DNA from: Gluconobacter potus
GTDB taxonomy: Bacteria; Pseudomonadota; Alphaproteobacteria; Acetobacterales; Acetobacteraceae
Direction: 5' to 3'
Length of the DNA stretch: 64,000 bases
NCBI RefSeq assembly: GCF_015244705.1
Contig: NZ_JABCQF010000009.1
Coordinates: 1 to 64,000, forward strand
Of this stretch, positions 4,512 to 54,724 are shown piece by piece (the stretch's first letter is position 1; each line of letters begins with the position of its first letter). The translations under genes were made by a program, and so were the position numbers. Below the pieces are notes generated by a model. It made no database searches, had not been told where the DNA came from, and saw only the letters and a list, made by a program, of their open reading frames with translations.

Positions 4512-6533
4512 ATGTCTGGTTCTCGTATCCTGTGGGGGCAACTCGGCCTCTGTTTCCTGATTGTCATTATGGCCTGGTCGGCCGCAACGCAGTGGGTCGC
4601 GTGGCGGCTCGCATTCCAGCCAGAACTCGGTCCTCCGTGGACTGTGGTGGCCGGACGGTGGCCGCTCTATCCGCCATTTCTGTTTCCGTGGTGGTGGTAC
4701 GAGTTCGACGCCTATGCACCACACATTTTCGTAGAAGGCGGATGGATCGCCGGATCTGGCGGAGTGCTCGCCTTCCTGACAGCAGTGGTCCTGTCCGTCA
4801 GGCGCGCGCGGGAGCATAAACGCACAGCCACCTATGGATCGGCCCGCTGGGCCGAACGCGACGATATCGAGCAGGCCGGACTTCTCGGCCAGGATGGCGT
4901 GGTGCTGGGGCGTTGGGAGCGCGACTACATCCGGCATGATGGCCCGGAGCATGTGCTCTGCTTCGCGCCGACGCGCTCGGGCAAGGGCGTAGGGCTGGTG
5001 ATCCCGACGTTGCTGACCTGGCCCGGTTCAGCCATTGTCCATGATATCAAGGGCGAAAACTGGTCCATTACGGCCGGGTTCCGGGGCCGCTTCGGTAGGC
5101 TGATTCTGTTTGATCCCACCAATCTCGCGTCATGCGCCTACAATCCGCTGCTGGAAATCCGTCTCGGCGAGTGGGAAGTGCGCGATGCCCAGAACGTCGC
5201 CGACGTGCTGGTCGATCCCGAAGGCTCGCTGGAACGACGCAATCACTGGGAAAAAACCTCACATTCCCTGTTGGTGGGAGCCATTCTTCATGTCCTCTAT
5301 GCGGAACCGGACAAAAGCTTGCGTGGTGTCGCCAGCCTGCTGTCCGATCCGAAACGCTCGATCGCGGCCACCCTCGTTGTGATGATGGGCACGCGCCATC
5401 TTGGCGAGCGTGGCGTCCATCCGGTGGTGGCGTCGGCTGCGCGTGAATTGCTCAACAAATCCCCCAACGAGCGCTCCGGTGTGCTGAGTACGGCCATGTC
5501 GTTCCTTGGTCTGTATCGTGACCCTGTCGTGGCCGAGGTGACGAGCCGCAGCACCTGGCGGATTGGCGATCTCGTCAATCCGGCCCGGCCGACGACGTTA
5601 TACTTCGTTGTCCCGCCCTCGGACATCAGTCGCACCAAGCCGTTGATCCGGCTGATGCTTAACCAGATCGGGCGCAGGCTGACCGAGGATCTGTCCGGAG
5701 CAGAAGGGCGGCAGCGTCTTTTGCTGATGCTCGACGAGTTTCCCGCGCTCGGGCGGCTCGATTTCTTCGAAAGCGCGCTTGCTTTCATGGCTGGCTACCG
5801 GATCAAAGCGTTTCTGATCGCCCAGTCGCTCAACCAGATTGAAAAAGCCTACGGGCAGAACAACTCGATCATTGACAACTGCCATGTTCGCGTCAGCTTC
5901 GCGACCAACGATGAGCGGACAGCCAAACGTGTTTCCGATGCGCTTGGCACCGCAACCGAAATCCGCTCGCAGAAGAACTATGCCGGTCATCGGCTGTCGC
6001 CATGGCTCGGGCACCTCATGGTGTCCCGTCAGGAGAGTGCCCGACCACTGCTCACCGTCGGCGAGGTTCAGGAACTGCCAGCAACCGACGAACTGGTCCT
6101 GCTCTCGGGGATGTCGCCCGTTCGGGCAAAAAAGGCGCAATATTTTCGCGACAGCCGGTTTCGGGAACGGCTCTTGCCCGCGCCGGAGACGGGGACACGA
6201 GGATTACCGGTCGCACCCGACGACTGGACCTCGCGTCCGCAGCCATCAAAGCCTGAGGTCAAGCCCGACACACCAGAGGATGCGGTCAAGGAGGCGGGTG
6301 AGGAAGAAGATCCTGTCGGCACCGAGGCGCGCCGTCAGCCGGAAATGGACGTTTCCGAGGAGCCCGACCTGCCACCGCAGGGCGACGAGGACCCCGCGCG
6401 TGATGCGCCTATGCGCGAGCGTGAACGCGATCCGATGGAAGAGGAAGACCTTCATGCCGTGCTGACGGCGGATTTGGCCCGCAAAGCCCGTCAGGCGGCT
6501 CTTGATCCCGGCAATGATCTGGGGCTGTCATGA
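4512..6533 (+). CDS. traG: TraG/VirD4-type conjugal transfer coupling protein
   Basis: 673-residue type IV coupling protein that would link the relaxase-DNA complex to the Trb channel. Two membrane segments lie near the N-terminus (about 8-30 and 78-98). The Walker A motif APTRSGKGVG is at about 152-161, and Walker B LLLMLDEFPALG at about 402-413. The tail after about 560 is acidic and low in complexity. Its start codon follows directly on a hairpin that contains its ribosome binding site. The next gene starts inside its stop codon (ATGA). The length is normal for TraG of Trb systems. Confidence 0.96.
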   Translation: MSGSRILWGQLGLCFLIVIMAWSAATQWVAWRLAFQPELGPPWTVVAGRWPLYPPFLFPWWWYEFDAYAPHIFVEGGWIAGSGGVLAFLTAVVLSVRRAREHKRTATYGSARWAERDDIEQAGLLGQDGVVLGRWERDYIRHDGPEHVLCFAPTRSGKGVGLVIPTLLTWPGSAIVHDIKGENWSITAGFRGRFGRLILFDPTNLASCAYNPLLEIRLGEWEVRDAQNVADVLVDPEGSLERRNHWEKTSHSLLVGAILHVLYAEPDKSLRGVASLLSDPKRSIAATLVVMMGTRHLGERGVHPVVASAARELLNKSPNERSGVLSTAMSFLGLYRDPVVAEVTSRSTWRIGDLVNPARPTTLYFVVPPSDISRTKPLIRLMLNQIGRRLTEDLSGAEGRQRLLLMLDEFPALGRLDFFESALAFMAGYRIKAFLIAQSLNQIEKAYGQNNSIIDNCHVRVSFATNDERTAKRVSDALGTATEIRSQKNYAGHRLSPWLGHLMVSRQESARPLLTVGEVQELPATDELVLLSGMSPVRAKKAQYFRDSRFRERLLPAPETGTRGLPVAPDDWTSRPQPSKPEVKPDTPEDAVKEAGEEEDPVGTEARRQPEMDVSEEPDLPPQGDEDPARDAPMRERERDPMEEEDLHAVLTADLARKARQAALDPGNDLGLS

Positions 6534-6982
6534 GCGGCGCGCGCCAGAAGAAGAAGCGGCTTTCGGTCTATCTCGAGCCGCATCTGTGGAAGGGGCTGCG
6601 GACGCAGGCCGCCCGACGGTCGATGTCGGACTCCCTGCTGGCCGAAGCCGCGATTGCGGCGTGGCTCGACCCGGAAGGCGCTGGTGGCGATCCCAAAGCG
6701 TCGCTGGAAGCCGCCGTGCAGCGGCTCGATCGTCGTCAGGCGCGGATCGAGCGCGACCTGTCGATCTCGGTCGAGACGCTCGCGCTGTTCATCCGGCTCT
6801 GGTTCACCAGTATGCCGGGTCTTTCGGACAGCATGGCCGCAGCGGCCCGTGCCCAGGGGGCGGAGCGCTACGACCGTTTCGTCGAGATGCTGGGGCGACG
6901 GCTGGCCAGCGACAGGCGGTTCCGGACAGACATTGAGCGTGAGGCGAATGAAAGCAGCGACGCCGCTGTTAAAAAGGACTGA
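6530..6982 (+). CDS. Small CopG-like (ribbon-helix-helix) conjugation protein
   Basis: 150 residues, overlapping the traG stop by 4 bp, so translationally coupled. The N-terminus is basic, and the segment RLSVYLEPHLWKGLRTQAAR followed by a short helix resembles a ribbon-helix-helix fold. The rest is helical with coiled-coil character at about 60-75. Genes of this type are usually annotated CopG-family and sit between traG and trbB in alphaproteobacterial Trb operons. It may regulate transfer genes or assist TraG at oriT. Its function is not proven. Confidence 0.75.
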   Translation: MSGARQKKKRLSVYLEPHLWKGLRTQAARRSMSDSLLAEAAIAAWLDPEGAGGDPKASLEAAVQRLDRRQARIERDLSISVETLALFIRLWFTSMPGLSDSMAAAARAQGAERYDRFVEMLGRRLASDRRFRTDIEREANESSDAAVKKD

Positions 6983-20476: not shown

Positions 20477-22579
20477 TTACGACCACATGCCGCGTAATCT
20501 GGCTGCCATATCGATCCGCACCGACTTCACCGCCTCCTGCCTTGCCTGCTCTTCCGGTTTCACGACAGGCCATGACACGGCTTCGAACAAAGGCAGCATG
20601 TCCCGGTCGATGAAGCGTGTACGTGAAGCATAGACATGTCGGTCGCCCCGGCTGTGCTGGCCATGCACATAGAAACGCTGCGGCACCATGATATCGAGAC
20701 TGTCTTTCGCCCTCGTCATGGCCACATAGAGCAGGCGGCGTTCCTCCTCGATATCGTCCTGCTCGCCCGTCGCCAGATCAGACGGAATGCAGCCATCGAC
20801 TACGTTCATGAGGAACACATTCTTCCACTCCTGCCCCTTGGCGGAATGAATGGTCGAGAGGATCAGATAGTCTTCATCCAGCAACGGCACGCCAGCCTGA
20901 TCGGACGTGGCATCCGGCGGGTCCAGCGTCAGTTCGGTCAGGAATTTCTCGCGTGACGGGTACCCTCCGGCAATCTGCTCAAGCTGCACCAGATCGGCCA
21001 GACGGGTGGAGGCGTCCTCGTGCAGCCGCTCCAGATGTGGCTCATACCAGTACCGCGCGGCTGCAATCTCGCCCGGCCAGCCGACCTGATGGCTGCCGAG
21101 AGCGGTCAGCATATTCACGAAACCCGCCCAGACCTCACCACTCCGCTGTGGCGCTTTGACATCCTTCAACGCCTCGAAGGGATGGGCATTCTCGCCCATC
21201 GTATCCAGCACGCGCCGGGCTGAACCCGGCCCCACGCCCGGCAGAAGCTGCAATACCCGAAAGCCCGCGATGCGGTCGCGTGGGTTCTGGGCAAAACGCA
21301 ATAGCGCCAGCATATCTTTCACATGCGCACTGTCGAGAAACTTCAGGCCACCGAATTTCACGAACGGAATATTGCGCCGGGTCAGTTCCACCTCCAGCGT
21401 GCCGCTATGGTGCGAAGCCCGGAACAGCACAGCCTGCTGCTTCATTGGTGTTCCGGCCTCACGCTCTTCCAGCACTCGATCGGCAATGTAGTTGGCCTGC
21501 GCCGTGTCATCCCAGATAGTGACCAGTCGTGGCTTTTCCTCCGAAGCCCGCTCGGTCCACAGATCCTTGGTGAACCGCTCCGTCGCCTCGCCGATCACCG
21601 CATTGGCGGCATCCAGAATGGGTTTCGTGGAACGATAGTTCCTATCCAACGTCACGATGCGCGCCGGGGAATCGAAAGACACTGGAAAATCCAGAATGTT
21701 GCGCACGGTCGCCGCCCGGAAGGCATAGATGCTCTGCGCGTCATCACCCACCACCGTCAGGCCTCGGCCATCGGGCTTCATGCCCAGCAGCATCTCCGCC
21801 TGCAGCCGGTTGGTGTCCTGATACTCATCGACCAGCACATGATCCCATTTGCCGCCGATATCTGCGGCCAGAACCGGGTTGCTGACCATTTGCGCCCAGC
21901 ACAGCAGCAGATCGTCATAATCCAGCACGCTCTGCTCCTGTTTCGCCGTGACATAACCGGCGAAAAGCTGTTTCAACTGGGCTTCCCAGCCCGCGCACCA
22001 CGGATAGTGCTTCAGCAATACATCGGCGAGCGGCGCGCCTGAATTCACCACACGGGAATAGATGGCAAGGCACGTGCCCTTGCCGGGGAACCGCTTCTCG
22101 GTTTTGGAAAATTCCAGATCATGGCGGATCAGATTCATCAGGTCAGCGGAATCTTCGCGGTCATGGATCGAAAACGCCGGATCCATGCCGATCTGCTGGG
22201 CATACTCCCGCAGCAGCCGCGCACCGATGGAGTGGAACGTCCCAGACCAGGCCAGCGCGTCAGCGAGAGGTCCGGCCTTGTCGCCCAGCACGGTTTTGCA
22301 GATGCGTTCTACCCGCCGCGTCATCTCCACACTGGCGCGGCGCGAGAAGGTCAGCAACAGGATGCGGCGCGGATCAGCCCCTGAGGCGATCAGATGCGCG
22401 ACCCGATGGGCCAGTGTGTTGGTCTTGCCCGAACCAGCCCCGGCGATGACCTGCAGCGGGGATGAATCCGCCCCGCCTGTCGAGACTCCGGTCCCGTGCG
22501 TGACAGCCTGTCGCTGGGCCTCATTCAGACGGGACAGATAATCATCGCTGCCCGAAGCAGGAGAAGGTTCTGGATTCAA
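20477..22579 (-). CDS. UvrD/Rep-family ATP-dependent DNA helicase
   Basis: 700 residues; the start is a TTG at 22579, with AAGGAA unusually close. Walker A VIAGAGSGKTNTLAHRV lies near 44-60. Motif Ia LLLTFSRRA, motif II VDEYQDTN and later motifs such as STIHSAKGQEW and LYVAMTRAKD are all present. It is an SF1A 3'-5' helicase. It is divergent from the imuA-imuB-dnaE2 cassette (157 bp apart) and close to yedK, which suggests a DNA-repair cargo block. Confidence 0.93.
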   Translation of the reverse strand: MNPEPSPASGSDDYLSRLNEAQRQAVTHGTGVSTGGADSSPLQVIAGAGSGKTNTLAHRVAHLIASGADPRRILLLTFSRRASVEMTRRVERICKTVLGDKAGPLADALAWSGTFHSIGARLLREYAQQIGMDPAFSIHDREDSADLMNLIRHDLEFSKTEKRFPGKGTCLAIYSRVVNSGAPLADVLLKHYPWCAGWEAQLKQLFAGYVTAKQEQSVLDYDDLLLCWAQMVSNPVLAADIGGKWDHVLVDEYQDTNRLQAEMLLGMKPDGRGLTVVGDDAQSIYAFRAATVRNILDFPVSFDSPARIVTLDRNYRSTKPILDAANAVIGEATERFTKDLWTERASEEKPRLVTIWDDTAQANYIADRVLEEREAGTPMKQQAVLFRASHHSGTLEVELTRRNIPFVKFGGLKFLDSAHVKDMLALLRFAQNPRDRIAGFRVLQLLPGVGPGSARRVLDTMGENAHPFEALKDVKAPQRSGEVWAGFVNMLTALGSHQVGWPGEIAAARYWYEPHLERLHEDASTRLADLVQLEQIAGGYPSREKFLTELTLDPPDATSDQAGVPLLDEDYLILSTIHSAKGQEWKNVFLMNVVDGCIPSDLATGEQDDIEEERRLLYVAMTRAKDSLDIMVPQRFYVHGQHSRGDRHVYASRTRFIDRDMLPLFEAVSWPVVKPEEQARQEAVKSVRIDMAARLRGMWS

Positions 22580-41848: not shown

Positions 41849-42909
41849 TGGCGGAGCATGATGCACGGGACCTGTCACGCCGTCTGGCGGAGAACGCCGA
41901 GGCGGTGTGCCGTCATTACCTCTCGGCCGGGCGACGGCATGGCAATTACTGGCTGGTCGGCGATGTTCGTAACACCCCCGGCCGCTCGCTTTATGTCCGC
42001 CTGCATGGCCCTTCGGAAGGGCGCGGGGCCGCCGGGCGCTGGACGGATGCCAGCACCGGTGCGTTCGGCGATCTGCTCGACCTGATCCGTGATTGCCTCG
42101 GTCTGATCGAATTCCGCGACGTTGCTGACGAGGCGCGCAGCTTTCTGGCGCTGCCTCAGCCTGAACCTGACCGGGCGGCGGATCGCCCGCGAACGTCCCC
42201 GTCGCACCGGCCCGGGACGGGAGGCAGCAGCACGGACGCCGCACGCCGCCTGTGGGATGCCAGCCGGCCCCTGTCCGGTGTCGCGGCTGTCTATCTGCGG
42301 GGACGCGATCTGACGCGCTGTTCCCCTTTGGCTGCCCTGCGTTTTCACCCCGACTGCTACTATCGCGCTGATGCCGACAGTCCGCCCGAGACCTGGCCCG
42401 CGATGATCGCCGCCGTCACCGATCTCGGAGGTCGCGTCACCGGCGTTCATCGCACCTGGCTGGCGTGCGATGGACGCGGCAAGGCGCCTGTCGCCATACC
42501 CCGTCGGGCGATGGGCGATCTGCTCGGCCATGCCGTGCGTTTTGGCGCAGCCTCTGACGCTCTGGCGGCAGGCGAGGGGATCGAAACGGTGCTGTCGCTC
42601 CGCGAGGTCATGCCCGATCTGCCACTGGCCGCCTGCCTGTCCTCGGCGCATCTCGCCGCCATGGCGTTTCCGCCTGCCCTGCGCCGCCTCTACGTGCTGC
42701 GCGATGACGACCCGGCCGGCGACCATGCGGTGACGACCCTGCTCGCCCGGACGCAGGAGGCCGGGATCGAGTGCCTTGTGCTGTCACCGCGTCTGGCGGA
42801 TTTCAACGATGATCTGCGCTATCTCGGGCGCGGGGCGATGCGGGCGATCCTGCATCCCCAGCTTGCCCCGCAGGACGTGGCGCGGTTCCTGCAACCCGTC
42901 GCGCACTGA
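41845..42909 (+). CDS. Toprim-domain protein (primase-like)
   Basis: 354 residues. The N-terminal part resembles primase-associated zinc-less domains of plasmid proteins (GNYWLVGDVRNTPGRSLYVR). A middle region, VTGVHRTWLACDGRGKAPV, leads to a Toprim_3-like domain with the Glu in AAGEGIETVLSLRE and the Asp pair in YVLRDDDPAGD. Such proteins are thought to prime or nick DNA. It overlaps the helicase gene (ATGATG), so both likely handle the transferred strand. Confidence 0.85.
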   Translation: MMAEHDARDLSRRLAENAEAVCRHYLSAGRRHGNYWLVGDVRNTPGRSLYVRLHGPSEGRGAAGRWTDASTGAFGDLLDLIRDCLGLIEFRDVADEARSFLALPQPEPDRAADRPRTSPSHRPGTGGSSTDAARRLWDASRPLSGVAAVYLRGRDLTRCSPLAALRFHPDCYYRADADSPPETWPAMIAAVTDLGGRVTGVHRTWLACDGRGKAPVAIPRRAMGDLLGHAVRFGAASDALAAGEGIETVLSLREVMPDLPLAACLSSAHLAAMAFPPALRRLYVLRDDDPAGDHAVTTLLARTQEAGIECLVLSPRLADFNDDLRYLGRGAMRAILHPQLAPQDVARFLQPVAH

Positions 42910-43234
42910 GGCGGGCCGGGAAGGGGGTGTGGGGGCATCGTTTTTCCTTGTCGTGCGGGGCTGTCCTGCCTTGCTTCCGGGTGGGGCACGCCCGCGGGCC
43001 TTTTAAGAGGGGGAGCGGGCGTCAGCCAGGCCGGGCCTGCAATGGCGGAGCCGGCTATTTTCCGCCGCGCGGGACTGCGTCCGCGCTTTGCATCGCGAAA
43101 CAAAATAGCCGTCTCCCTGCCATCCTTCACTGCGTTCCGGCCGCGCGTTGCGCGGTTCCGGCCCGGCCTTCGTCTGCCGCTATCCGCCCCCGGAAAGGCC
43201 GCGAGTGGCGCGGCCAGAACCGGAGGACAGACCC
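42910..43234. other. Leader region of the DUF2493 gene
   Basis: 325 bp, GC-rich and without a convincing gene. It contains the nested hairpin at 43052-43111. A GC-rich inverted section (CCGCGCG around 43141-43153) follows. Confidence 0.5.
43052..43111 (+). ncRNA. Structured leader element A (nested hairpin)
   Basis: Outer stem CGGCTATTTT (43052-43061) with AAAATAGCCG (43102-43111), 10 perfect pairs. It encloses an inner GC-rich hairpin, GGAC-TGC-GTCC (43072-43082), extended by four more pairs around a bulged G. Elements B and C have the same plan with different stem sequences. It lies 124 bp before the DUF2493 start. A cis-acting RNA is likely; a DNA-level single-strand origin or binding site is an alternative. 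Confidence 0.55.
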
Positions 43235-44170
43235 ATGACCCGCACACAGGACGATTTCGAACCCGCCCACGCCACCTCTTCAACCGCCCATGTGCTGGCG
43301 GAACTCCAGCTTTACGGCCACCGTCCCTTCGAGGATGAGCCGGACCCGCGGCCATTGCCCGAAGCACCCCGCATCGGTGGCGCGGTCGCCGACATCTTCG
43401 ATGCCCTGTCAGCCACGCTGACCGACACAAGGCTGGAACCCGATCTCGAACCGCTGCTCTGGTCCACGGTCAACGTCTTTCACCGCATGGTCGGGCAGGT
43501 CGAACGGGATCTCGATCGCAACGAGGCAGCGCAGAAGCGCAGCCAGCAGGAACAGGATGGCAGCGAGATCCGCTCGGTGGAACTGGAACGTCTCATCGCC
43601 GAGGGCCTGACCCTGCTGGAGCGACGCAACGCCTACGAGATCTTCCGCGCCCTCGCCTGCGACCAGTTCGAACGCCTGACCATGTCGCCCTGGCGACCGC
43701 GCTCCGGTTCGCTGGTCAGCCGCAGCACCCTGACGGCATCCATGATCGACAGCCGCGATTTCCTCAACGCCCGCCGCAAGGCCGAAACCGAACTGCTCGT
43801 GCCTCCCGGACCCAAGGTCGCGGTCACTGGCGGGCTCGATTACGAGGACCATCACCTGATCTGGAACCGGCTGGACAAGGTGCGGGAGAAGCATCCCGAC
43901 ATGGTGCTGCTGCACGGCGGTTCACCGAAGGGGGCGGAATTCATCGCCTCCCGGTGGGCCGATCATCGGCAGGTGGCGCAGATCGCCTTCAAACCGGACT
44001 GGAACCGGCACGGCAAGGCCGCCCCGTTCCGGCGTAACGACGCTCTGCTGAAAGTCCTGCCAATCGGGGTCATGGTATTCCCCGGATCGGGCATTCAGGA
44101 CAATCTGGCCGACAAGGCCAAACAGATGGGTATCCCGGTCTGGCGGTTCCGCAAGGACAGTGGCGCGTGA
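43235..44170 (+). CDS. DUF2493 (SLOG-like) domain protein
   Basis: 311 residues from ATG 43235, preceded by GGAGGA; the frame extends upstream into the leader. A helical N-terminal half is followed by the DUF2493/YspA-like Rossmann domain, with PKVAVTGGLDYEDHHLIW, LLHGGSPKGAEFIASRWA and GVMVFPGSGIQDN. The SLOG superfamily binds nucleotides or nucleotide-derived ligands, and some members sense signals in defence systems. On plasmids and ICEs the role is unknown. Its leader holds structured element A. Confidence 0.88.
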   Translation: MTRTQDDFEPAHATSSTAHVLAELQLYGHRPFEDEPDPRPLPEAPRIGGAVADIFDALSATLTDTRLEPDLEPLLWSTVNVFHRMVGQVERDLDRNEAAQKRSQQEQDGSEIRSVELERLIAEGLTLLERRNAYEIFRALACDQFERLTMSPWRPRSGSLVSRSTLTASMIDSRDFLNARRKAETELLVPPGPKVAVTGGLDYEDHHLIWNRLDKVREKHPDMVLLHGGSPKGAEFIASRWADHRQVAQIAFKPDWNRHGKAAPFRRNDALLKVLPIGVMVFPGSGIQDNLADKAKQMGIPVWRFRKDSGA

Positions 44171-44220
44171 GCGCCATCGTTCTCCAAGAAGGGTATATCA
44201 ACATCCGTGGTGAGAAGAGT

Positions 44221-44577
44221 TTATTCTTTCGATATGCTTTTATAAATGCAGGAGATGCTCTGAACGCCGCTATAGGCACCGTCGATATGAAATGGTTTCC
44301 CCTCTTCGCAAAGAAGACGCCGATAATAGTCGCCATCTCCCGATACTCGACCCGTGCCTATTTCGGGAACTGGCTGAATTTTTTTGATTTCAATCCGATG
44401 TCCGGAATAGCAGGTATGTGCCTTGAATTCTTTGTCCAGATCCTCCGCGCTCCTGTTCTTTCCGATCTCGTTTACAGCATCGACAGAACAGGACGATACG
44501 CTCTGAGCACTCGCCGCAGATATATTGGCCAGCATAAATCCAGAAAAAATGGGAAGAACGAAAAGACCGGCCTTCAT
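44221..44577 (-). CDS. Small secreted protein with conserved-looking cysteines
   Basis: 118 residues from ATG 44577, with GAGGA eight bases upstream. A signal peptide of about 24 residues ends near NISAASAQS, leaving a mature part with four cysteines and a central EIGTGRVSGDGDYYRRL. It is encoded opposite to the surrounding genes in AT-richer DNA, so it looks like an independent insert. No family is recognised. It could be periplasmic or secreted. Confidence 0.6.
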   Translation of the reverse strand: MKAGLFVLPIFSGFMLANISAASAQSVSSCSVDAVNEIGKNRSAEDLDKEFKAHTCYSGHRIEIKKIQPVPEIGTGRVSGDGDYYRRLLCEEGKPFHIDGAYSGVQSISCIYKSISKE

Positions 44578-45345
44578 GATAACGAGTTCCTCTTTTCTAT
44601 ACGAAAGCATTGAGTCGATCGCACAATGTAGAAATGCAAAATAGAGATATATCAACATATGACTTCGATAAAGTGCGCCTTCGCAACCTGTTTCCACACT
44701 GAAGGAGATTAAGCCGGACTGCCCCACCCCTCACGCCGGACTGGAGGAGGGAAGAACTTTTCCCCGTTCCGGCTGCGGGGACGATGGATGAGGGAGGCGG
44801 TGGTCCCCTTCCGCGTCGGTGAACAGGTCGAAACTGCAGTGGCGAAGCAGGGATCGTCCAGCGGACAACTGGCTGCCCAGCCTTCGTTGAAACGACGGGT
44901 CCATAGAATGCGGCTCGAACCGTTTGTAGCAGGGACGCGGCAGATAGGGGCGGGTGTCTCTAGCCGCGATCCGCGCCAACAGCAGGTAAGACGGTCGCAC
45001 CGGGCGAGCGCGATATCCTCCTATGTCGCACGTTCCCCACCTGTCGGACCGGTCATGCCGGCATCGTCTCTCCATGGGGCTGGCGGGTCCGCACACCATG
45101 GCCTCTGTCGGATGGCTGATCTAGCCGAAGACCGGCTGCGCCTCGATCGGCTGGCCGCAACGGCGTTCCAGAACTTTCTTCCCCTGACGGCTGCGCCGTC
45201 ATTCCTCGCGAGACAAGAAAGTTCCGGCCCTGCCGTCCTCCGCTGCGCTTCGGCCCTGAAGGGTGCTCTGCCGCTCGCCTCCGGCTGGTCGATCGCCATC
45301 GAGGCCACGGTGGTCGCGGCCCGATAACAGCATGGAGATACGACA
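44578..45345. other. Leader region of the first DUF736 gene
   Basis: About 770 bp without a supportable gene. The first ~150 bp are AT-richer, as in the secreted-protein gene; the rest is GC-rich and carries structured element B at 45171-45224. Open frames here on both strands look like compositional shadows. Confidence 0.5.
45171..45224 (+). ncRNA. Structured leader element B (nested hairpin)
   Basis: Outer stem GAACTTTCTT (45171-45180) with AAGAAAGTTC (45215-45224), 10 perfect pairs. The inner hairpin TGACGGC-TGC-GCCGTCA (45185-45201) has 7 pairs and a TGC loop. The bases after the outer stem (CCCTGCCGTCCTCCGCTGCG) resemble those after element A. It lies 121 bp before the DUF736 start. Confidence 0.55.
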
Positions 45346-45669
45346 ATGGCTAACATCGGTTCCTTCAAGAAGGTGGGCGAAGGCTTCGAAGGCGAGATCG
45401 TCACCCTGGCCCTGCAGGCCCGCAACGTCCGCCTGGTGGCGGAAACCAACCGGGCCAACGACAACGCCCCCAACTACCGCGTCTACCTTGGACGGGTTGA
45501 ACTCGGCGCCGCATGGACCCGCCGCTCCAACGAAGGCCGCACCTATCTGAGCCTGAAGCTGGACGATCCCTCCTTCGCCGCCCCGATCTTCGCCAACCTG
45601 TTCACCGACGAGGAAGGGGAAGGCTACACCCTCATCTGGACCCGGCCCCGCAGCCGGAACGGGGAGTAA
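45346..45669 (+). CDS. DUF736 family protein (copy 1)
   Basis: 107 residues, starting MANIGSFKKVGEGFEGEIVT, with RRSNEGRTYLSLKLDDPSF and the ending TLIWTRP typical of DUF736. The family is nearly confined to conjugative elements of Proteobacteria and has no known function. A second, diverged copy lies at 51141-51482. A GC-rich terminator follows directly. The start is preceded by GGAG at 45332-45335, with a spacing of about ten bases. Confidence 0.93.
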   Translation: MANIGSFKKVGEGFEGEIVTLALQARNVRLVAETNRANDNAPNYRVYLGRVELGAAWTRRSNEGRTYLSLKLDDPSFAAPIFANLFTDEEGEGYTLIWTRPRSRNGE

Positions 45670-45684
45670 GCTCCCCACCACCAA

Positions 45685-45709
45685 CCCCGCCCGGTCTTCC
45701 CGGGCGGGG
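45685..45709 (+). terminator. Terminator after DUF736 copy 1
   Basis: CCCCGCCCGG (45685-45694) and CCGGGCGGGG (45700-45709) form a perfect 10-bp stem with a 5-nt loop. The following sequence (CCTTCC, later TTCTTTT) has no clean T-tract, so termination strength is uncertain. Confidence 0.65.
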
Positions 45710-46010
45710 CCTTCCGGCACTTCTTTTCCCACGTGCTCTTCCGGGCGCGGGCGGCAGCGCTGGTCGCCCGACGTGAGACGCAAGAGGAACACGAGGCTTT
45801 CCCTCAGCCTTCCCATTGTACCATGCGCGAGGGCAAACCGCGTCAAGGACGCGTGGTCCCCCCAATTTTGCCCGACGCACCCCTGCGGGCGCGCCGAACA
45901 AAATCGGCTCCCCCACGCGCCGGCGAGCCGGTCGCCTGCGGCGATCCCTGACCCGGTCCACCCCGGCATGAGCCGGCGGCCTGTCTTCAAGAAACGAAAG
46001 GAGCAGGACG
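45710..46010. other. Leader region of the 48-residue gene
   Basis: 300 bp without a gene between the terminator and the small frame. It carries structured element C at 45862-45907, followed by GC-rich inverted repeats (CCGGCGAGCCGG). Confidence 0.5.
45862..45907 (+). ncRNA. Structured leader element C (nested hairpin)
   Basis: Outer stem CCAATTTTG (45862-45870) with CAAAATCGG (45899-45907), eight pairs and one mismatch. The inner GC-rich hairpin has CCC-TGC-GGG at 45881-45889 plus a three-pair base. It has the same architecture as elements A and B but a less perfect outer stem. It lies about 100 bp before the 48-residue gene. Confidence 0.45.
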
Positions 46011-46157
46011 ATGACCACGCACCACGGCCACATCCAGATGCTGCGCGCCGAACTGACCAGCTTTCACCTGAGCCGTCGCGAGCGCCAGCAGATCGAGCGC
46101 GAACTGGAGCATGCCATGGCGCAGATCGCAGCGACGCACCGGCGCTCGGACGAATGA
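46011..46157 (+). CDS. Small helical protein, 48 residues
   Basis: ATG 46011 to TGA 46157, with AAAGGAG eight bases upstream. The product begins MTTHHGHIQMLRAELTSF and continues with RRERQQIERELEHAMAQIA, a strongly amphipathic helix rich in Arg and Glu. It is too short for most gene callers. GC-rich third codon positions and a good ribosome binding site support it. Function unknown; a small DNA- or protein-binding helix is conceivable. Confidence 0.6.
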   Translation: MTTHHGHIQMLRAELTSFHLSRRERQQIERELEHAMAQIAATHRRSDE

Positions 46158-46275
46158 GCCGGGCGGAACGGCAGTCCCATGCATGTAGGCGGGGAACACT
46201 TCTGGTAAGCCTGTTTGAGCAAAACATCCCCGCCAGATCATATCGGGTACGTCTTTTTTTCTGGAATAACTACAG

Positions 46276-46874: not shown

Positions 46875-47087
46875 ATGGAGACACGACCCGATTGGTATAG
46901 TCCCGGATTTCTGGACAGGGCGTTCACGCTCGACCTCCCTGATTTTGCGCAGGAGTTCCTCTCCCTGAATCAGGATTATGTGCGTGGATACCATGCATTT
47001 ACCGGACTCTCCGACTCAGACGAGACGGTCCGCCAGCGCAATCTCGATGCTTTTGCACGTCAGTGGGGCCTCCGATTTCCCTGTTGA
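46875..47087 (+). CDS. DUF6499-like small protein
   Basis: 70 residues, with the conserved pattern RPDWYSPGFLDRAFTLDLPDFAQEFL and ending QWGLRFPC. Sequences like this form the N-terminal domain of DUF2285 regulators on ICEs. Here the frame stops and the DUF2285 part continues in the next phase, overlapping by about 40 bp. It may be a natural split with translational coupling or a frameshifted fusion. AGGAG lies upstream of the start. Confidence 0.75.
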   Translation: METRPDWYSPGFLDRAFTLDLPDFAQEFLSLNQDYVRGYHAFTGLSDSDETVRQRNLDAFARQWGLRFPC

Positions 47088-47694
47088 CCCGTCCATCCCT
47101 GCGTGGGCTGCCCCTGCGCTTTGGGCGGCGGAGGCTCTCTCTGCCATCATCGCGCTGGTCCGCGCCCCTGAAATCTACACAGCCGCCACATTTACACCCC
47201 TGATCCTGACACCACACATTCATGCCGCAACCGCCGATGACGGCCTTCACGTCATCATGGGAGATCGGGCCGGACCGCTGCGGTTATGGATCGCCGATGA
47301 CTGCCACGGCAGACCCGCTGTCGTGATTCCTCTTGATGAATCCTGTTGGGTACGTCTTCATCATTTGCGTCGCTTCATCGAGCATCTGTATGGCAGGAGG
47401 AGCGGTCCGTTGCCCAACGTCTTTCGCCCCACACGCTATAGAATCAGGCGTCTTGCCCACGCCTTGCAGGCGCTCACCGCCAAACGTTCCGGCGCCACGG
47501 CGCGTGACATCGCGGCCCTGACGGACCCCGAAGTGAAGTCTCTGAGCGGCTCTCTGTGGAAAGACGTTCACCAGCGTGCCCGCGTCGAACGCCTGCTGAC
47601 GCTTGGGGAGCAACTTGCCGCCGGCGAATACCTCGCCTTGCTGCAATATGGTCGTCGTGCATTTCCGCAGACGACATCGCACACTCCCTGCTGA
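47047..47694 (+). CDS. DUF2285 domain-containing protein
   Basis: About 215 residues from ATG 47047; the frame is open from 46978. The C-terminal DUF2285 domain covers about 130-205 (RPTRYRIRRLAHALQALTA and GATARDIAALT, with KDVHQRARVERLL). DUF2285 proteins accompany AlpA/RepA genes in Trb-type ICEs and are thought to be DNA-binding regulators. It overlaps the DUF6499-like gene and is followed by a terminator-like hairpin. Confidence 0.85.
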   Translation: MLLHVSGASDFPVDPSIPAWAAPALWAAEALSAIIALVRAPEIYTAATFTPLILTPHIHAATADDGLHVIMGDRAGPLRLWIADDCHGRPAVVIPLDESCWVRLHHLRRFIEHLYGRRSGPLPNVFRPTRYRIRRLAHALQALTAKRSGATARDIAALTDPEVKSLSGSLWKDVHQRARVERLLTLGEQLAAGEYLALLQYGRRAFPQTTSHTPC

Positions 47695-47905: not shown

Positions 47906-48172
47906 ATGGTCAGGAAAAGGCCCCAACCGAGACCGGCCCGGCATCTGCGGACCCCACAGGCTGCTGAATGGCTCGGTATTTCACCAAGAACACTTGAACG
48001 ATACCGCACAATTGGCGGTGGTCCTGTCTTCTACAAGCTCGGTAACCGCGTCACCTATACAACTGGAGATCTGAAAACATGGGTCGAAAACGGCCTTTCA
48101 AAGTCTATTTTCTCTAAAAATTACATCCTCATGCGCGCGGGTGTCGCACGGCGCGGAAAGGGGCGATCATGA
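47906..48172 (+). CDS. AlpA/MerR-like helix-turn-helix protein
   Basis: 88 residues. The segment TPQAAEWLGISPRTLERYRT and GGGPVFYKLGNRVTYTTGDL is the winged helix of AlpA/excisionase-type regulators. In related ICEs this gene directly precedes repA and probably controls it or acts in excision. The start is preceded by GGAGAA. The stop overlaps repA by 4 bp. Confidence 0.88.
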   Translation: MVRKRPQPRPARHLRTPQAAEWLGISPRTLERYRTIGGGPVFYKLGNRVTYTTGDLKTWVENGLSKSIFSKNYILMRAGVARRGKGRS

Positions 48173-48996
48173 CCCCCTGCATGCCCCGTCTCTTCATGTC
48201 CAACGCGTTCTTTGCGCTGGGGAAGGGACGCCGTCACGCCCCGCTGCGCTTCAGGCAGGGCAGTCAGAACATCCTCGTTTCGTCTCCGATGGCGCTTGCG
48301 ACCATATGGGACGCTGACATCCTGATCTGGGCAACATCGACGATGATCGCGGCGCAGCGTTGCGGCGCCCCGATCCCGACAGTCCTTCAGGCCACACGGT
48401 ATGAGATCCTCGGCTTTCCGGGGCGCTGCGTTTCGGGTGGGTATTACGAGCGTCTGCCAGACGGGCTCGAACGCCTCAGCCGGACCAATGTCGTCATGAG
48501 CGCGTCAGAATGGACTGATGAGCAGACCGGCGCGCCGTGGATCGAAGACTGGCGGATCTCCGCCGGCTTCGTCCAGATCCGTCTCGCCGGCTGGGTGCGC
48601 GAAGCGGTTCTCACGCCAAGGGCCGTGCTCGCGCTTGACCCGGCGTATTTTACCCTCACCAGCGGTCTCGAACGACTGCTCTACCTGATCGCACGCCGCC
48701 ATGCCGGGCGGCAACGTGACGGCTGGGTTTTTGAGGTCGCCCATCTGCACCGCAAGACAGGAATTACCCAGACGCTCACAGCGTTCGTGGCGATCCTCCG
48801 GCGCATAGCCCGCAGCAACCCGCTTCCCGGTTATCGCATCGAACTATCCGATCTGAACTGGCCGGAACGGGTGCGCCTGAGGCCCGCTCCCGATGCGTCT
48901 GTGGATAAGTCTGTTGATATCCCTGTCGATAATTTTGTGCGGACACGCCTATCGACCAGTGAATCCACGCCTATCGCGTGCGAAAACCATCGATAA
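48169..48996 (+). CDS. Replication initiator protein A (RepA-like)
   Basis: 275 residues of the RPA family. Hallmarks are FMSNAFFALGKGRR, SPMALATIWDADILIWATS and LTSGLERLLYLIARRHAGR. It would initiate plasmid-like replication of the excised circular ICE. ATG 48169 overlaps the upstream gene; ATG 48181 is an alternative start. In relatives repA is followed by parA, but here a methyltransferase gene follows after about 250 bp. Confidence 0.9.
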   Translation: MTPCMPRLFMSNAFFALGKGRRHAPLRFRQGSQNILVSSPMALATIWDADILIWATSTMIAAQRCGAPIPTVLQATRYEILGFPGRCVSGGYYERLPDGLERLSRTNVVMSASEWTDEQTGAPWIEDWRISAGFVQIRLAGWVREAVLTPRAVLALDPAYFTLTSGLERLLYLIARRHAGRQRDGWVFEVAHLHRKTGITQTLTAFVAILRRIARSNPLPGYRIELSDLNWPERVRLRPAPDASVDKSVDIPVDNFVRTRLSTSESTPIACENHR

Positions 48997-51140: not shown

Positions 51141-51482
51141 ATGACCCACATCGGTGTCTTCACGCGCACGGCGAGCGGCTTCGCCGGCCGCCTGCGCACA
51201 CTCTCCCTCGACGCGGAACTGACCTTCGCGCGAGCCGAGAACACGGACGCGGAGAACGCGCCCGACTATCGCATCCATCTCGGTGACAACGCCGAGGCGC
51301 CCGAGATAGGGGCAGGCTGGACCCGCACCGGGGAACGCGCCGGCGAATACGTCGTGGTGCTGTTGGACGATCCGTCGCTCGCCCAGCCGATCCGCGCCAC
51401 CCTGTTTCAGGCCGGTCGCGGCGGTCGTGTCTGGAACCTCGTCTGGACGCGCGCCGCCAAGCGTCAGGGAGGCCGGGAATGA
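51141..51482 (+). CDS. DUF736 family protein (copy 2)
   Basis: 113 residues with DUF736 landmarks MTHIGVFTRTASGFAGRLRT, NAPDYRIHL, WTRTGERAGEYVVVLLDDPS and NLVWTRA. It is a clear but diverged paralogue of 45346-45669. It overlaps the next gene by 4 bp, so it belongs to the traF-slt operon. No structured leader was noticed before this copy. Confidence 0.9.
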   Translation: MTHIGVFTRTASGFAGRLRTLSLDAELTFARAENTDAENAPDYRIHLGDNAEAPEIGAGWTRTGERAGEYVVVLLDDPSLAQPIRATLFQAGRGGRVWNLVWTRAAKRQGGRE

Positions 51483-52740: not shown

Positions 52741-52987
52741 CGGCATGGTGCATGCTGGCTCCTGCCTCGTTGCTACGTCCGGGTTTGGATGGGCACAGAA
52801 GGACGCTGGGGGAGGGGGTTGCGTATAGGCAGGATAAAAGCCGCGATGTGCGTCTCGGTTGGGGGTGGTTTTGTGGCGAATTTCTGCGGATTTCTGGCCC
52901 CCTCTGCGAGGTGCGGGCCGCTCTGAAGCCTGCTTCTCCCCGTTTCTGGCGGTTTCCGGCCATTTTGCGCACCTCGCGGGGATTTCC
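52737..52987 (-). other. oriT: Candidate oriT upstream of the relaxase gene
   Basis: On the minus strand TATCCTGCC (complement of 52829-52837) matches the IncP/VirD2-type nick consensus YATCCTG|Y, predicting a cut between the bases opposite 52831 and 52830. A perfect 10-bp inverted repeat, GCGAGGTGCG (52906-52915) and CGCACCTCGC (52968-52977), lies between the nick site and the relaxase gene. Codon use here is unlike the flanking genes. A VirD2-like relaxase starts at 52988. An 84-residue frame covers the region and is listed separately. Confidence 0.6.
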
Positions 52988-52991
52988 ATGA
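52737..52991 (+). CDS. Possible 84-residue protein overlapping oriT region
   Basis: The frame begins in an ATGA overlap with the transglycosylase stop and ends in an ATGA overlap with the relaxase start, an arrangement typical of coupled genes. Against it, codon use is not GC3-biased, no domain is recognisable and the stretch holds the candidate oriT. It may be a read-through coupling device rather than a functional protein. Confidence 0.3.
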   Translation: MTAWCMLAPASLLRPGLDGHRRTLGEGVAYRQDKSRDVRLGWGWFCGEFLRISGPLCEVRAALKPASPRFWRFPAILRTSRGFP

Positions 52992-54724
52992 CAAAAGACG
53001 ACGATTTCCGGGTTCGACCGGGTCGCATCCGCTCGCCCGGCACCCAGCGGGCACGGCCCTTCATTGCCCAGGCGCTGGCGGCCACTCAGCGGGCGGGGGG
53101 CATGGGACGAGGGAGGCAGGGCGGTGGTGGTCGCTCGACCTTCGGGCGCGGCCGTGTGGCGAGCGCGCATGCCAACCGTTTCCTCACCAGTCGCTCACGC
53201 GGGGTGGTGATCAAGGCGCGCGTTGTGAAGCATGGACCGCGCGCAGCACCACTGACTCCGCATCTCCGGTATCTGCGGCGCGAGGGTGTGACACAGGATG
53301 GCGAGAAGGCGAAGCTGTTCGGCCCCGAGCAGGACGAGGTCGATCCCAAAGCTTTCGCCGAGCGGTGCGCCGATGATCGTCATCATTTCCGCTTCATCGT
53401 TTCCCCGGATGATGCCGTGGAGATGCAGGATCTGAAGCGCTTCACGCGCGACCTGATGACGCAGGCTGAGCACGATCTTGGCACGAAGCTCGACTGGGTG
53501 GCCGTCGATCACTGGAACACTGAGCATCCCCACATTCATGTCATCGTGCGGGGCAAGGCCCAAGACGGCGAGGACCTGGTGATCGCGCGCGATTACATCC
53601 GGGAAGGCATGCGGGGTCGTGCGCAGGAACTCGTGACCCGCGAACTCGGTCTGCGCAACGATGTGGAGATTCGGCGCGCCGTTGAGCGCCAGGTCGAGGC
53701 CGACCGCTGGACGCAACTCGATCGGCAGCTTCAGCGCGATGCGGGTGAACATGGACTCATTGATATGCGCCCCTCACCGGATCGGCGGCCCGACACGTTC
53801 GAGGTGCTCAAGGTCGGCCGTCTCCGGCGCCTGGAAGGACTGGGGCTGGCGCGGCAGATCGAACTGGGCCGCTGGGCGCTGGAGGAGCACGCCGAGGCGA
53901 CATTGCGTGAAATGGGGCAACGCAACGACATCATCAAACGGATTCATCGTGGCCTTGCCGAACAGGGTGTGGAACGACCGCAAGCGTCGTGGGTGCTGGC
54001 GAGCGACGAAGCGGAGCATCCTGTCCTCGGCAGACTGGTCGGGCGCGGGCTTGATGACGAGTTGAAGGGCACGGCCTTTGCGGTAGTAGACGGGATCGAC
54101 GGACGAACCCATCATGTGCATCTTCCCAGCCTGGAAGCGACCACCGACGCACCGATGGGAGCGATCCTCGAACTGCGCCGGTTCGAGGACGCGAAAGGGC
54201 GAAGTCGGATCGCGCTGGCGGTGCGGTCGGACTTCACGCTGGAGCAGCAGGTAGAGGCGCAGGGGGCCACATGGCTGGACAGACAGGCCTTGGCCAACGA
54301 ACCGCCAGAACTGGGTGGCGGCTTCGGGGCGGAGGTGCGGGACGCGATGCGTCGACGTGCGGATCATCTCGTGCGGGAAGGGCTCGCGCAGCGGGACGGG
54401 GAACGTGTCAGGTTCGAGCGGGGTTTGCTGTCCACGCTTCGAGAGCGCGAGCTGAGGGCTGCCGGGGAGAAACTCGCGCGGCAGGAAGGAAGGCCGTTCG
54501 ATCCCGTTGCGCCGGGTGACAACGTGGCTGGTGTTTATCGTCAGCGCATCACTCTAGCGTCGGGACGATACGCGATGATCGACAACGGACTGGGGTTTCA
54601 GTTAGTTCCATGGACGCCAGCGATTGACAAGCAAATCGGAAAGGCGGTCTCCGGAACAACGCGGGGAAGTGGGGCAATCGCGTGGGAATTTTCAAAAAAG
54701 CGAATAATAGCGATCGGGATGTAA
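52988..54724 (+). CDS. VirD2-like relaxase with DUF3363 domain
   Basis: 578 residues from ATG 52988 (GGGGA upstream). After an Arg/Gly-rich N-terminus, the relaxase domain shows RHHFRFIVSPDDAVEM and the histidine triad region VAVDHWNTEHPHIHVIVRG near 174-192. The large C-terminal half is the DUF3363 domain. It would nick oriT and pilot the strand into the recipient. The C-terminal 30 codons become AT-rich, right where the foreign-looking segment starts, but the reading frame ends in a normal position. Confidence 0.93.
   Translation: MTKDDDFRVRPGRIRSPGTQRARPFIAQALAATQRAGGMGRGRQGGGGRSTFGRGRVASAHANRFLTSRSRGVVIKARVVKHGPRAAPLTPHLRYLRREGVTQDGEKAKLFGPEQDEVDPKAFAERCADDRHHFRFIVSPDDAVEMQDLKRFTRDLMTQAEHDLGTKLDWVAVDHWNTEHPHIHVIVRGKAQDGEDLVIARDYIREGMRGRAQELVTRELGLRNDVEIRRAVERQVEADRWTQLDRQLQRDAGEHGLIDMRPSPDRRPDTFEVLKVGRLRRLEGLGLARQIELGRWALEEHAEATLREMGQRNDIIKRIHRGLAEQGVERPQASWVLASDEAEHPVLGRLVGRGLDDELKGTAFAVVDGIDGRTHHVHLPSLEATTDAPMGAILELRRFEDAKGRSRIALAVRSDFTLEQQVEAQGATWLDRQALANEPPELGGGFGAEVRDAMRRRADHLVREGLAQRDGERVRFERGLLSTLRERELRAAGEKLARQEGRPFDPVAPGDNVAGVYRQRITLASGRYAMIDNGLGFQLVPWTPAIDKQIGKAVSGTTRGSGAIAWEFSKKRIIAIGM

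What the first reader, a model, noticed from the sequence alone, without database searches (positions are those of the whole stretch)
43052..45907. Three nested hairpins with the same plan and different sequences
Elements at 43052-43111, 45171-45224 and 45862-45907 each have an AT-rich outer stem (TTTT/AAAA core) around a GC-rich hairpin with a TGC loop, upstream of DUF2493, DUF736 and a 48-residue gene. The outer stems differ almost completely (CGGCTATTTT versus GAACTTTCTT) yet stay paired, which is covariation. A and B also share the sequence just after the stem. This is the best candidate here for an undescribed structured RNA or single-strand DNA element.
Basis: partly seen in the sequence, partly recalled or inferred. 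Interest (0 to 1): 0.75.

Follow-up and report, generated by a model that had tools for sequence, protein, structure and literature searches.

The report
Folding switches on incoming conjugation DNA
Three look-alike hairpins in a mobile DNA element belong to a large, apparently undescribed family that folds best on the DNA strand sent into a new cell during conjugation, and they probably switch on the first genes the newcomer needs before its second strand is made.

Summary
A, B and C are nested hairpins set in folded leaders (roughly 140-250 nt) before leading-region genes of alphaproteobacterial ICEs and conjugative plasmids: DUF2493, DUF736 and a 48-56 aa gene here; for the A/B family elsewhere also ArdC, ArdA, SSB and ParB. 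No Rfam family matches. A covariance model of A/B shows strong covariation (124 double-changed cells against 34.5 in shuffles), finds 137 elements in 93 searched stretches (many fetched because they hold one) and rings in 35 of 299 Pseudomonadota genomes.

The key finding is strand asymmetry: outer-stem mispairs read on the sense strand are A.C 44, G.T 5 (17:1 after collapsing relatives), so wobble is tolerated almost only on the complementary strand. Likely nick sites make that the T-strand, transferred in conjugation. In 48 of 48 elements with a relaxase on the same stretch, the element's sense direction points at the relaxase. The known single-stranded DNA promoter Frpo shows the same signature.

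Best reading: T-strand elements that work like Frpo, most likely as single-stranded DNA promoters, but not homologous to it. Promoter activity is inferred; no sigma-70 consensus was found, and some strand tests were weak.

The parts
42990..43234 (-). type A folded leader upstream of DUF2493 (ends approximate), long-range stem GGCCTTT...AAAGGCC included; structure read on the minus (T-) strand
   Evidence: consensus fold of 14 relatives: minus -145.0, plus -135.3; minus more stable 14/14 with DNA parameters
43048..43115 (-). element A, nested hairpin: AT-rich outer stem, core TTG-nnn-CGCGATG / GGCGGAA on the minus strand, GC-rich inner hairpin
   Evidence: model R1 match E 4e-13
43235..44170 (+). 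DUF2493 / YspA-SLOG protein gene (PF10686); start chosen by eye from the sequence
   Evidence: Pfam E 1e-29 for the longer ORF 43148-44170
45115..45345 (-). type B folded leader upstream of DUF736 (ends approximate)
   Evidence: 655 plasmid records hold a relative; consensus fold of 46 relatives minus -52.9, plus -45.6
45167..45228 (-). element B, nested hairpin with core TTG-nnn-CGCGAGG / GGGGAA on the minus strand
   Evidence: model R1 match E 2.7e-15
45346..45669 (+). DUF736 gene (PF05284)
   Evidence: Pfam E 9.8e-35
45820..45960 (-). type C folded leader, minus strand (ends approximate)
   Evidence: 39 relatives, most of them close: consensus fold minus -207.4, plus -167.9; minus more stable 39/39
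45862..45907 (-). element C, hairpin fully paired only on the minus strand (G.T counted)
   Evidence: fold z -4.82 minus against -1.76 plus; conserved in relatives
46011..46157 (+). 48-residue gene of unknown function; 56-aa look-alikes behind C-type leaders in L083 and L086
   Evidence: no Pfam match
52829..52835 (-). likely nick site ATCCTG^C; would make the minus strand the T-strand and the left side the leading region
   Evidence: of eight ATCCTG[CT] sites listed for 41-56 kb this one shares its context (CGCACATCGCGGC..TTTATCCTGCC) with L084 26936 and lies just before the relaxase gene; nick motif recalled
52988..54715 (+). relaxase gene (VirD2/MOBP type, RlxS-like), ahead of A and B on the same strand

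Best explanation
A, B and C are single-stranded DNA elements of the transferred strand. In conjugation the minus strand is nicked near 52.83 kb and enters the recipient 5' end first. The region to the left of the nick goes in early, and each leader folds on that single strand into a long-range structure capped by an AT-rich stem and a GC-rich hairpin. The fold makes local duplex DNA. Most likely RNA polymerase then starts on it and transcribes towards the nick, using the T-strand as template, so that DUF2493, DUF736 and the small gene (elsewhere ArdC, ArdA, SSB, ParB) are expressed before the second strand is made. Shown here by sequence: family, covariation, strand asymmetry, polarity, gene set. 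Inferred: that the fold forms in the cell, that RNA polymerase uses it, and that expression is early and transient. My confidence in the T-strand DNA element alone is about 0.85; the value given is for the promoter function.
For: Outer-stem mispairs found by a scan that scores A.C and G.T alike: 44 A.C to 5 G.T in 109 distinct elements, 17 to 1 in 48 clusters; other mismatches, which the scan penalises more, 42 and 17. Innermost model pair on the minus strand T.G 22, C-G 20 of 48. Minus strand more stable with DNA parameters in 14/14 type A, 42/46 type B and 39/39 type C. Composition-controlled z lower on minus in 41 of 60 type A+B leaders, p 0.0014. Covariation score 0.602 against 0.208 in shuffles, at most 0.215 when slid. 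48 of 48 elements (31 stretches) with a relaxase match: element's sense strand equals the relaxase strand and the relaxase lies ahead. Likely nick sequences on the same minus strand in four Ti-type plasmids, the window and L084. Downstream genes of 137 hits: DUF736 68, DUF2493 37, ArdC 8, SSB 2, ParB 2, 20 unresolved, one of these ArdA; Pfam confirms ArdC in 5, ParB and ArdA in 1 each. Median hairpin-to-start distance 119 (DUF736, range 74-155), 122 (DUF2493, 95-286), 131.5 (ArdC, 112-484). Positive control: Frpo copies of F-like plasmids, A.C 15 to G.T 2 at pairs shared by both strands' folds, T-strand more stable 11 of 11 (12 of 12).
Against: The asymmetry is clear in the outer stem but weaker over the whole leader: at pairs common to both strands' consensus A.C:G.T is 42:23 (type A, p 0.025) and 60:42 (type B, p 0.09), and at the plus-strand consensus pairs it vanishes (47:58 and 61:56). 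Composition-controlled z is not significant for type B alone (28 of 46, p 0.06). A blanket test of leading-region intergenics showed no T-strand bias: minus better in 22 of 39, controls 8 of 14, F stretches 1 of 4 including only one of two Frpo copies. No sigma-70-like boxes beyond chance, though the same scan also fails on Frpo. The type C and Frpo sets are close relatives, so their cell counts are not independent. A mutational bias on an exposed T-strand could add to the A.C excess. No transcript or in vivo data.
Confidence: 0.6

Rival explanations
1. T-strand single-strand element of another use: a priming (ssi) site for complementary-strand synthesis, or a landing site for a plasmid protein, primase or similar factor, without promoter function.
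For: Same strand and polarity evidence as the main reading; no promoter consensus; the title of the 1997 Frpo paper, seen as a reference, names both transcription and primer RNA synthesis.
Against: Fairly constant position before particular genes (median 119-131.5 nt to the start for DUF736, DUF2493 and ArdC), and recurrence with the gene classes named for F and ColIb-P9 leading regions (ssb, ard genes), fit a promoter better than a free-standing priming site.
Confidence: 0.25
2. Structured mRNA leader on the sense strand (riboswitch, attenuator or protein-binding leader).
For: Leader position, strong covariation, conserved core; the sense strand also folds, and over plus-consensus pairs the mispairs are balanced.
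Against: Outer-stem G.T 5 against A.C 44; type C 23 against 93 at shared pairs; minus consensus fold better in all three types; no sigma-70 consensus in 42850-46200.
Confidence: 0.06
3. Antisense RNA transcribed from the minus strand, whose fold is what is conserved.
For: The better-folded strand is the minus strand.
Against: Does not explain why all 48 testable elements point at the relaxase or the leading-region gene set; no sigma-70 consensus on either strand of 42850-46200.
Confidence: 0.05
4. Ordinary double-stranded dyad: operator, cruciform or terminator.
For: Inverted repeats upstream of genes.
Against: Dyads and cruciforms are symmetric between strands, so outer-stem A.C and G.T should be about equal (44 and 5); stem sequence varies with pairing kept; the two terminator-like sites found in 42850-46200, fewer than in shuffles, lie elsewhere.
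Confidence: 0.04

Closest known systems
Frpo / ssi single-stranded DNA promoters of F and ColIb-P9 (1997 Cell paper seen only as a reference; PMC9849209 passages; PMC11541004 passages)
   Same: leading region, upstream of early genes including ssb and anti-restriction genes, long imperfect fold with an AT-rich apical stem, T-strand fold better than the complement and wobble mostly on the T-strand, genes point towards oriT
EGeRS1 of Bacillus plasmid pLS20 (PMC8708921, passages)
   Same: repeated structured sequences directly upstream of ardC and other establishment operons
   Different: its authors judged an ssDNA promoter highly unlikely, for length, for lack of a promoter in the fold, and for a reason about the nicked strand (passage cut off); here the polarity fits
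Rfam RNA families
   Same: covarying structured leaders
   Different: no match at gathering score; up to E 5 only four rows far below their cut-offs
ICEMlSymR7A-type ICEs (PMC8627217, passages)
   Same: conjugation genes trb, rdfS, rlxS, fseA, traF; DUF736 genes on all such elements, often in duplicate
   Different: leaders are not mentioned in the passages seen

Membership tests
Frpo-type ssDNA promoter | lies in the leading region upstream of early genes | tested here: met
   gene tables; downstream genes of 137 hits, 20 unresolved
Frpo-type ssDNA promoter | fold belongs to the T-strand rather than its complement | tested here: met
   with the weaker results told under evidence against; control
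Frpo-type ssDNA promoter | T-strand is the template of the driven gene (nick strand and relaxase direction) | tested here: met
   48 of 48 testable elements towards the relaxase, 89 of 137 not testable; likely nick motifs on the minus strand in six loci, not identified in L054 and L087 (motifs recalled)
Frpo-type ssDNA promoter | sequence homology to known Frpo/ssi | tested here: not met
   (only Frpo of F tested, not ssi of ColIb-P9)
Frpo-type ssDNA promoter | -35 and -10 boxes rebuilt in the folded duplex | tested here: inconclusive
   no clear excess over shuffles in types A-C, nor in Frpo with the same scan
Frpo-type ssDNA promoter | RNA polymerase transcribes from the single-stranded form; early expression in transconjugants | not testable with these tools
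   no expression data
cis-regulatory RNA leader | structure conserved on the transcript strand, G.U tolerated there | tested here: not met
   outer stem G.T 5 against A.C 44
described Rfam family | score at or above a family's gathering threshold | tested here: not met
   only a tRNA at 35-108
ssi priming site | primes complementary-strand synthesis | not testable with these tools
   needs an M13-type assay

The most novel reading that the evidence does not exclude
Alphaproteobacterial ICEs and conjugative plasmids (Ti-type and RlxS-type) carry their own independent system of single-stranded DNA promoters, in at least three structural types with new cores, that switch on establishment genes from the incoming strand without a canonical sigma-70 promoter. 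DUF736, DUF2493 and the 48-56 aa protein would then be unrecognised establishment or anti-defence genes.
Probability: 0.5. Interest if true: 0.88.

Novelty: new variant of a known kind. Interest (0 to 1): 0.8.

Why it matters
In the passages read here, single-stranded DNA promoters are described from F-type and ColIb-type plasmids and sought mainly by similarity to a handful of sequences or by -35/-10 consensus. A second, sequence-unrelated family in alphaproteobacteria would suggest that early expression from the incoming strand is a general strategy, give a covariance model to find it, and mark genes of unknown function (DUF736, DUF2493, the 48-56 aa gene) as likely establishment or anti-defence genes. 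The A.C/G.T asymmetry is itself a cheap test for whether a conserved hairpin works as RNA, duplex DNA or transferred strand.

Tried and rejected
Sense-strand RNA leader: considered first, rejected on outer-stem wobble. Dyad or cruciform: rejected for the same reason. Rfam: no family. A blanket idea that all leading-region intergenics fold on the T-strand: not supported, 22 of 39 against 8 of 14 controls; with the 280-nt cut used there one of the two Frpo copies of F failed too, three of the 14 controls (L084) lie on the leading side of the relaxase, and 2 of 16 listed controls were too short and dropped. Sigma-70 scans: nothing beyond chance, uninformative because Frpo fails too. The raw pattern searches (88 of 385 genomes, 18 of 385) contain many matches without the hairpin and were used only as sources of loci, not as counts. 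First automatic choice of downstream reading frames was wrong for many of its 51 'other' rows and was replaced. Rows dropped before counts: one search had 125 distinct elements, 109 passed stricter core rules; 5 of 53 references were left out of the model alignment; 2 of 139 model hits were anti-strand copies of other hits; 89 of 137 elements had no relaxase match on the fetched stretch. One model hit, L193 26792, lies on the other strand of its locus than the rest (18 of 19) and had no relaxase match, so it is untested. Model searches over more than 40 genomes use stricter filters and lose weak matches.
Full report
WHAT WAS CHECKED. Each has an AT-rich outer stem around a GC-rich inner hairpin with TGC in the loop, upstream of DUF2493 (43235-44170, PF10686), DUF736 (45346-45669, PF05284) and a 48-residue ORF (46011-46157, no Pfam match). 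No Rfam family matches. A first fold of 101-126 nt stretches already showed an oddity: all three fold better on the minus strand by shuffle-controlled z (-3.05, -2.33, -4.82 minus; -2.49, -0.35, -1.76 plus), and C is fully paired only on the minus strand, with G.T pairs.

A FAMILY. The leader of B has relatives in 655 plasmid records (mostly Agrobacterium, Rhizobium, Bradyrhizobium, Sinorhizobium), that of A in 73. Leaders upstream of DUF736 homologues show two core forms: type B, TT-CCCC[inner hairpin]CCTCGCG-nnn-C-AA, and type A, TT-CCGCCG[inner hairpin]GCATCGC-nnn-C-AA, as read on the sense strand; DUF736 genes of another context (for example L066, L068-L070) lack them in the stretch shown. 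Type C has its own relatives: 27 distinct hairpins and 39 distinct longer sequences, nearly all from acetic acid bacteria, with C-type leaders also before 56-aa genes in plasmids of Rhizobium (L086) and K84 (L083). In type A a further pair covaries: CCG[X]CG...TTT[Y]CATCGC with X-Y as C-G, T-A or G-C (read). Long-range stems enclose the hairpin.

COVARIATION. A model of the A/B hairpin (R1, 48 sequences, minus strand) has 12 pairs, 9 with changes on both sides; 93.4% of cells pair against 71.7% in shuffles; 124 double-changed cells against 34.5; covariation score 0.602 against 0.208, with 0 of 500 shuffles as high; slid controls reach at most 0.215. R1 finds 137 elements in 93 stretches (1.6 Mb; 139 rows, 2 of them anti-strand copies), 134 of them at E below 1e-5 (many stretches were fetched because they hold elements, and model E-values are rough). 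It rings in 35 of 299 Pseudomonadota genomes, 4 of them outside the window's class.

WHICH STRAND. If a hairpin works as RNA in the mRNA, G.U on the sense strand should be the common tolerated mispair. If it works as duplex DNA or a cruciform, A.C and G.T should be about equal. If it works on the complementary strand, A.C (read on the sense strand) should dominate. A scan that scores the two alike gave, in the outer stem, A.C 44, G.T 5, other 42 in 109 distinct elements; after collapsing to 48 clusters 17, 1 and 17. On the model alignment, minus-strand G.T is 22 and A.C 1 in 44 clusters without the innermost pair (that alignment leans towards the model). The innermost pair alone reads T.G 22, C-G 20 of 48 on the minus strand. 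Over whole leaders the picture is weaker: at pairs common to both strands' consensus A.C:G.T is 42:23 (type A) and 60:42 (type B, p 0.09); at minus-consensus pairs 69:26 and 123:46; at plus-consensus pairs 47:58 and 61:56. Type C at shared pairs is 93:23, in 26 against 16 pair columns (close relatives). Consensus folds are better on the minus strand in all three types: A -145.0/-135.3, B -52.9/-45.6, C -207.4/-167.9. Single folds with DNA parameters: minus better in 14/14, 42/46 and 39/39. With composition controlled by dinucleotide shuffles: A 13 of 14 (p 0.0002), B 28 of 46 (p 0.06), together 41 of 60 (p 0.0014).

THE STRAND IS PROBABLY THE T-STRAND. In four Ti-type plasmids (L053, L083, L086, L088) the traC-traA gap holds, on the sense strand, CCAAGGGCG followed by CA in three and TA in L053 and then a shared AT-rich stretch ending ATACGTCGC; its complement reads like an RSF1010-type nick, CG^CCCTTGG, on the minus strand (motif recalled). 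In the window (52835) and L084 (26936) a conserved context ends in TATCCTG^C on the minus strand just before the relaxase gene; other ATCCTG sites exist on both strands, L085 has one on the minus strand at 21676, and none stood out in L054 or L087 (motif recalled). Either way the T-strand would start at the nick and run into the region with the elements. Independently, in 48 of 48 elements whose stretch contains a relaxase match (31 stretches; queries TraA of L083, relaxases of L084 and L085), the element's sense strand is the relaxase's strand and the relaxase lies ahead. Gene tables of annotated plasmids show leading-region content in the same direction: among them ParB, SSB, DUF932, RadC, ArdC-type zincins, strawberry-notch helicase, toprim, DUF2493, DUF736 (not every gene in every plasmid).

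GENES DRIVEN. Of 137 elements: DUF736 68, DUF2493 37, ArdC 8, SSB 2, ParB 2, unresolved 20. Pfam confirms ArdcN in five of the proteins given, ParB in one, and ArdA in one of the unresolved; the SSB match of L229 is just below Pfam's cut-off (24.7 against 26). The start codon lies at a median of 119 nt (DUF736, 117 for five more distant ones), 122 (DUF2493), 131.5 (ArdC), 111 (SSB) and 87.5 (ParB) from the hairpin.

POSITIVE CONTROL. Frpo, the known single-stranded DNA promoter, was read from F (two copies) and ten related plasmids. T-strand fold better in 12 of 12 with RNA and DNA parameters; at pairs common to both strands' consensus A.C 15, G.T 2, in 11 and 2 pair columns. Without one plasmid that should not have been used: 11 of 11, 15 and 2. 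PMC9849209 reports no significant rise of reporter fluorescence in transconjugants when Frpo1 or Frpo2 is deleted (passages).

MECHANISM. Best reading: on entry the T-strand folds; RNA polymerase uses the fold and transcribes towards the nick, giving early products that protect the incoming DNA. Shown: family, covariation, strand, polarity, gene set. Inferred: fold in vivo, polymerase use, timing. The nearest rival keeps the T-strand element but gives it a priming or protein-landing role. I found no sigma-70 boxes, but the same scan fails on Frpo.

NOT GENERAL. Leading-region intergenics as a whole do not show the bias: minus better in 22 of 39, controls 8 of 14, F stretches 1 of 4. So only some operons carry such elements, or the test is weak: one of the two Frpo copies failed it at the 280-nt cut, and three controls lie on the leading side.

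IN PRINT. Searches of the held library. Other papers were seen as listings; passages were read of PMC11541004, PMC9849209, PMC12826799, PMC8627217 and PMC8708921. The main texts of PMC11541004 and PMC12826799 do not contain 'Agrobacterium' or 'Alphaproteobacteria'; they find Frpo by BLAST with known or candidate sequences, the former also by -35/-10 and UP consensus in four islands. No passage seen describes these leaders; supplements and most subscription papers were not open, so prior description cannot be excluded.

Noticed in passing
L087 (Sulfitobacter plasmid) 6347-6626: Leader of the SSB gene folds far better on the T-strand (z -4.52 against -0.63) without the AT-stem core: perhaps a further type of single-strand element.
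   Followed up: partly
window 51141-51482: The second DUF736 gene, beside the signal-peptidase (traF-like) gene, has no model hit upstream.
   Followed up: partly
L012, L015, L027, L041 type B hairpins: About 38 nt of extra GC-rich inverted repeat sits in the inner loop, as if a mobile repeat had landed in the tip without breaking the outer stem.
   Followed up: no
L065, L073, L108, L111, L158, L166: An optional longer insert (such as GACGCTTCGCTTC) replaces the three variable bases between the CGCG core and the 3' arm.
   Followed up: no
L205, L206, L207, L208: Model hits in four genomes outside the window's class, one with ArdC downstream (L206), one with an RlxS-type relaxase ahead (L205).
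   Followed up: partly
window 46978-47694, 47906-48172, 48169-48996: RovC/DUF2285-type protein, a small HTH-like gene and an RPA replication initiator between the elements and the relaxase, as in ICEMlSym-type cores (the small gene was not scanned).
   Followed up: no
L193 25916-26854: Bradyrhizobium pNK6c has elements on opposite strands 0.8 kb apart; a 62-aa DUF736-like reading frame follows one of them.
   Followed up: no
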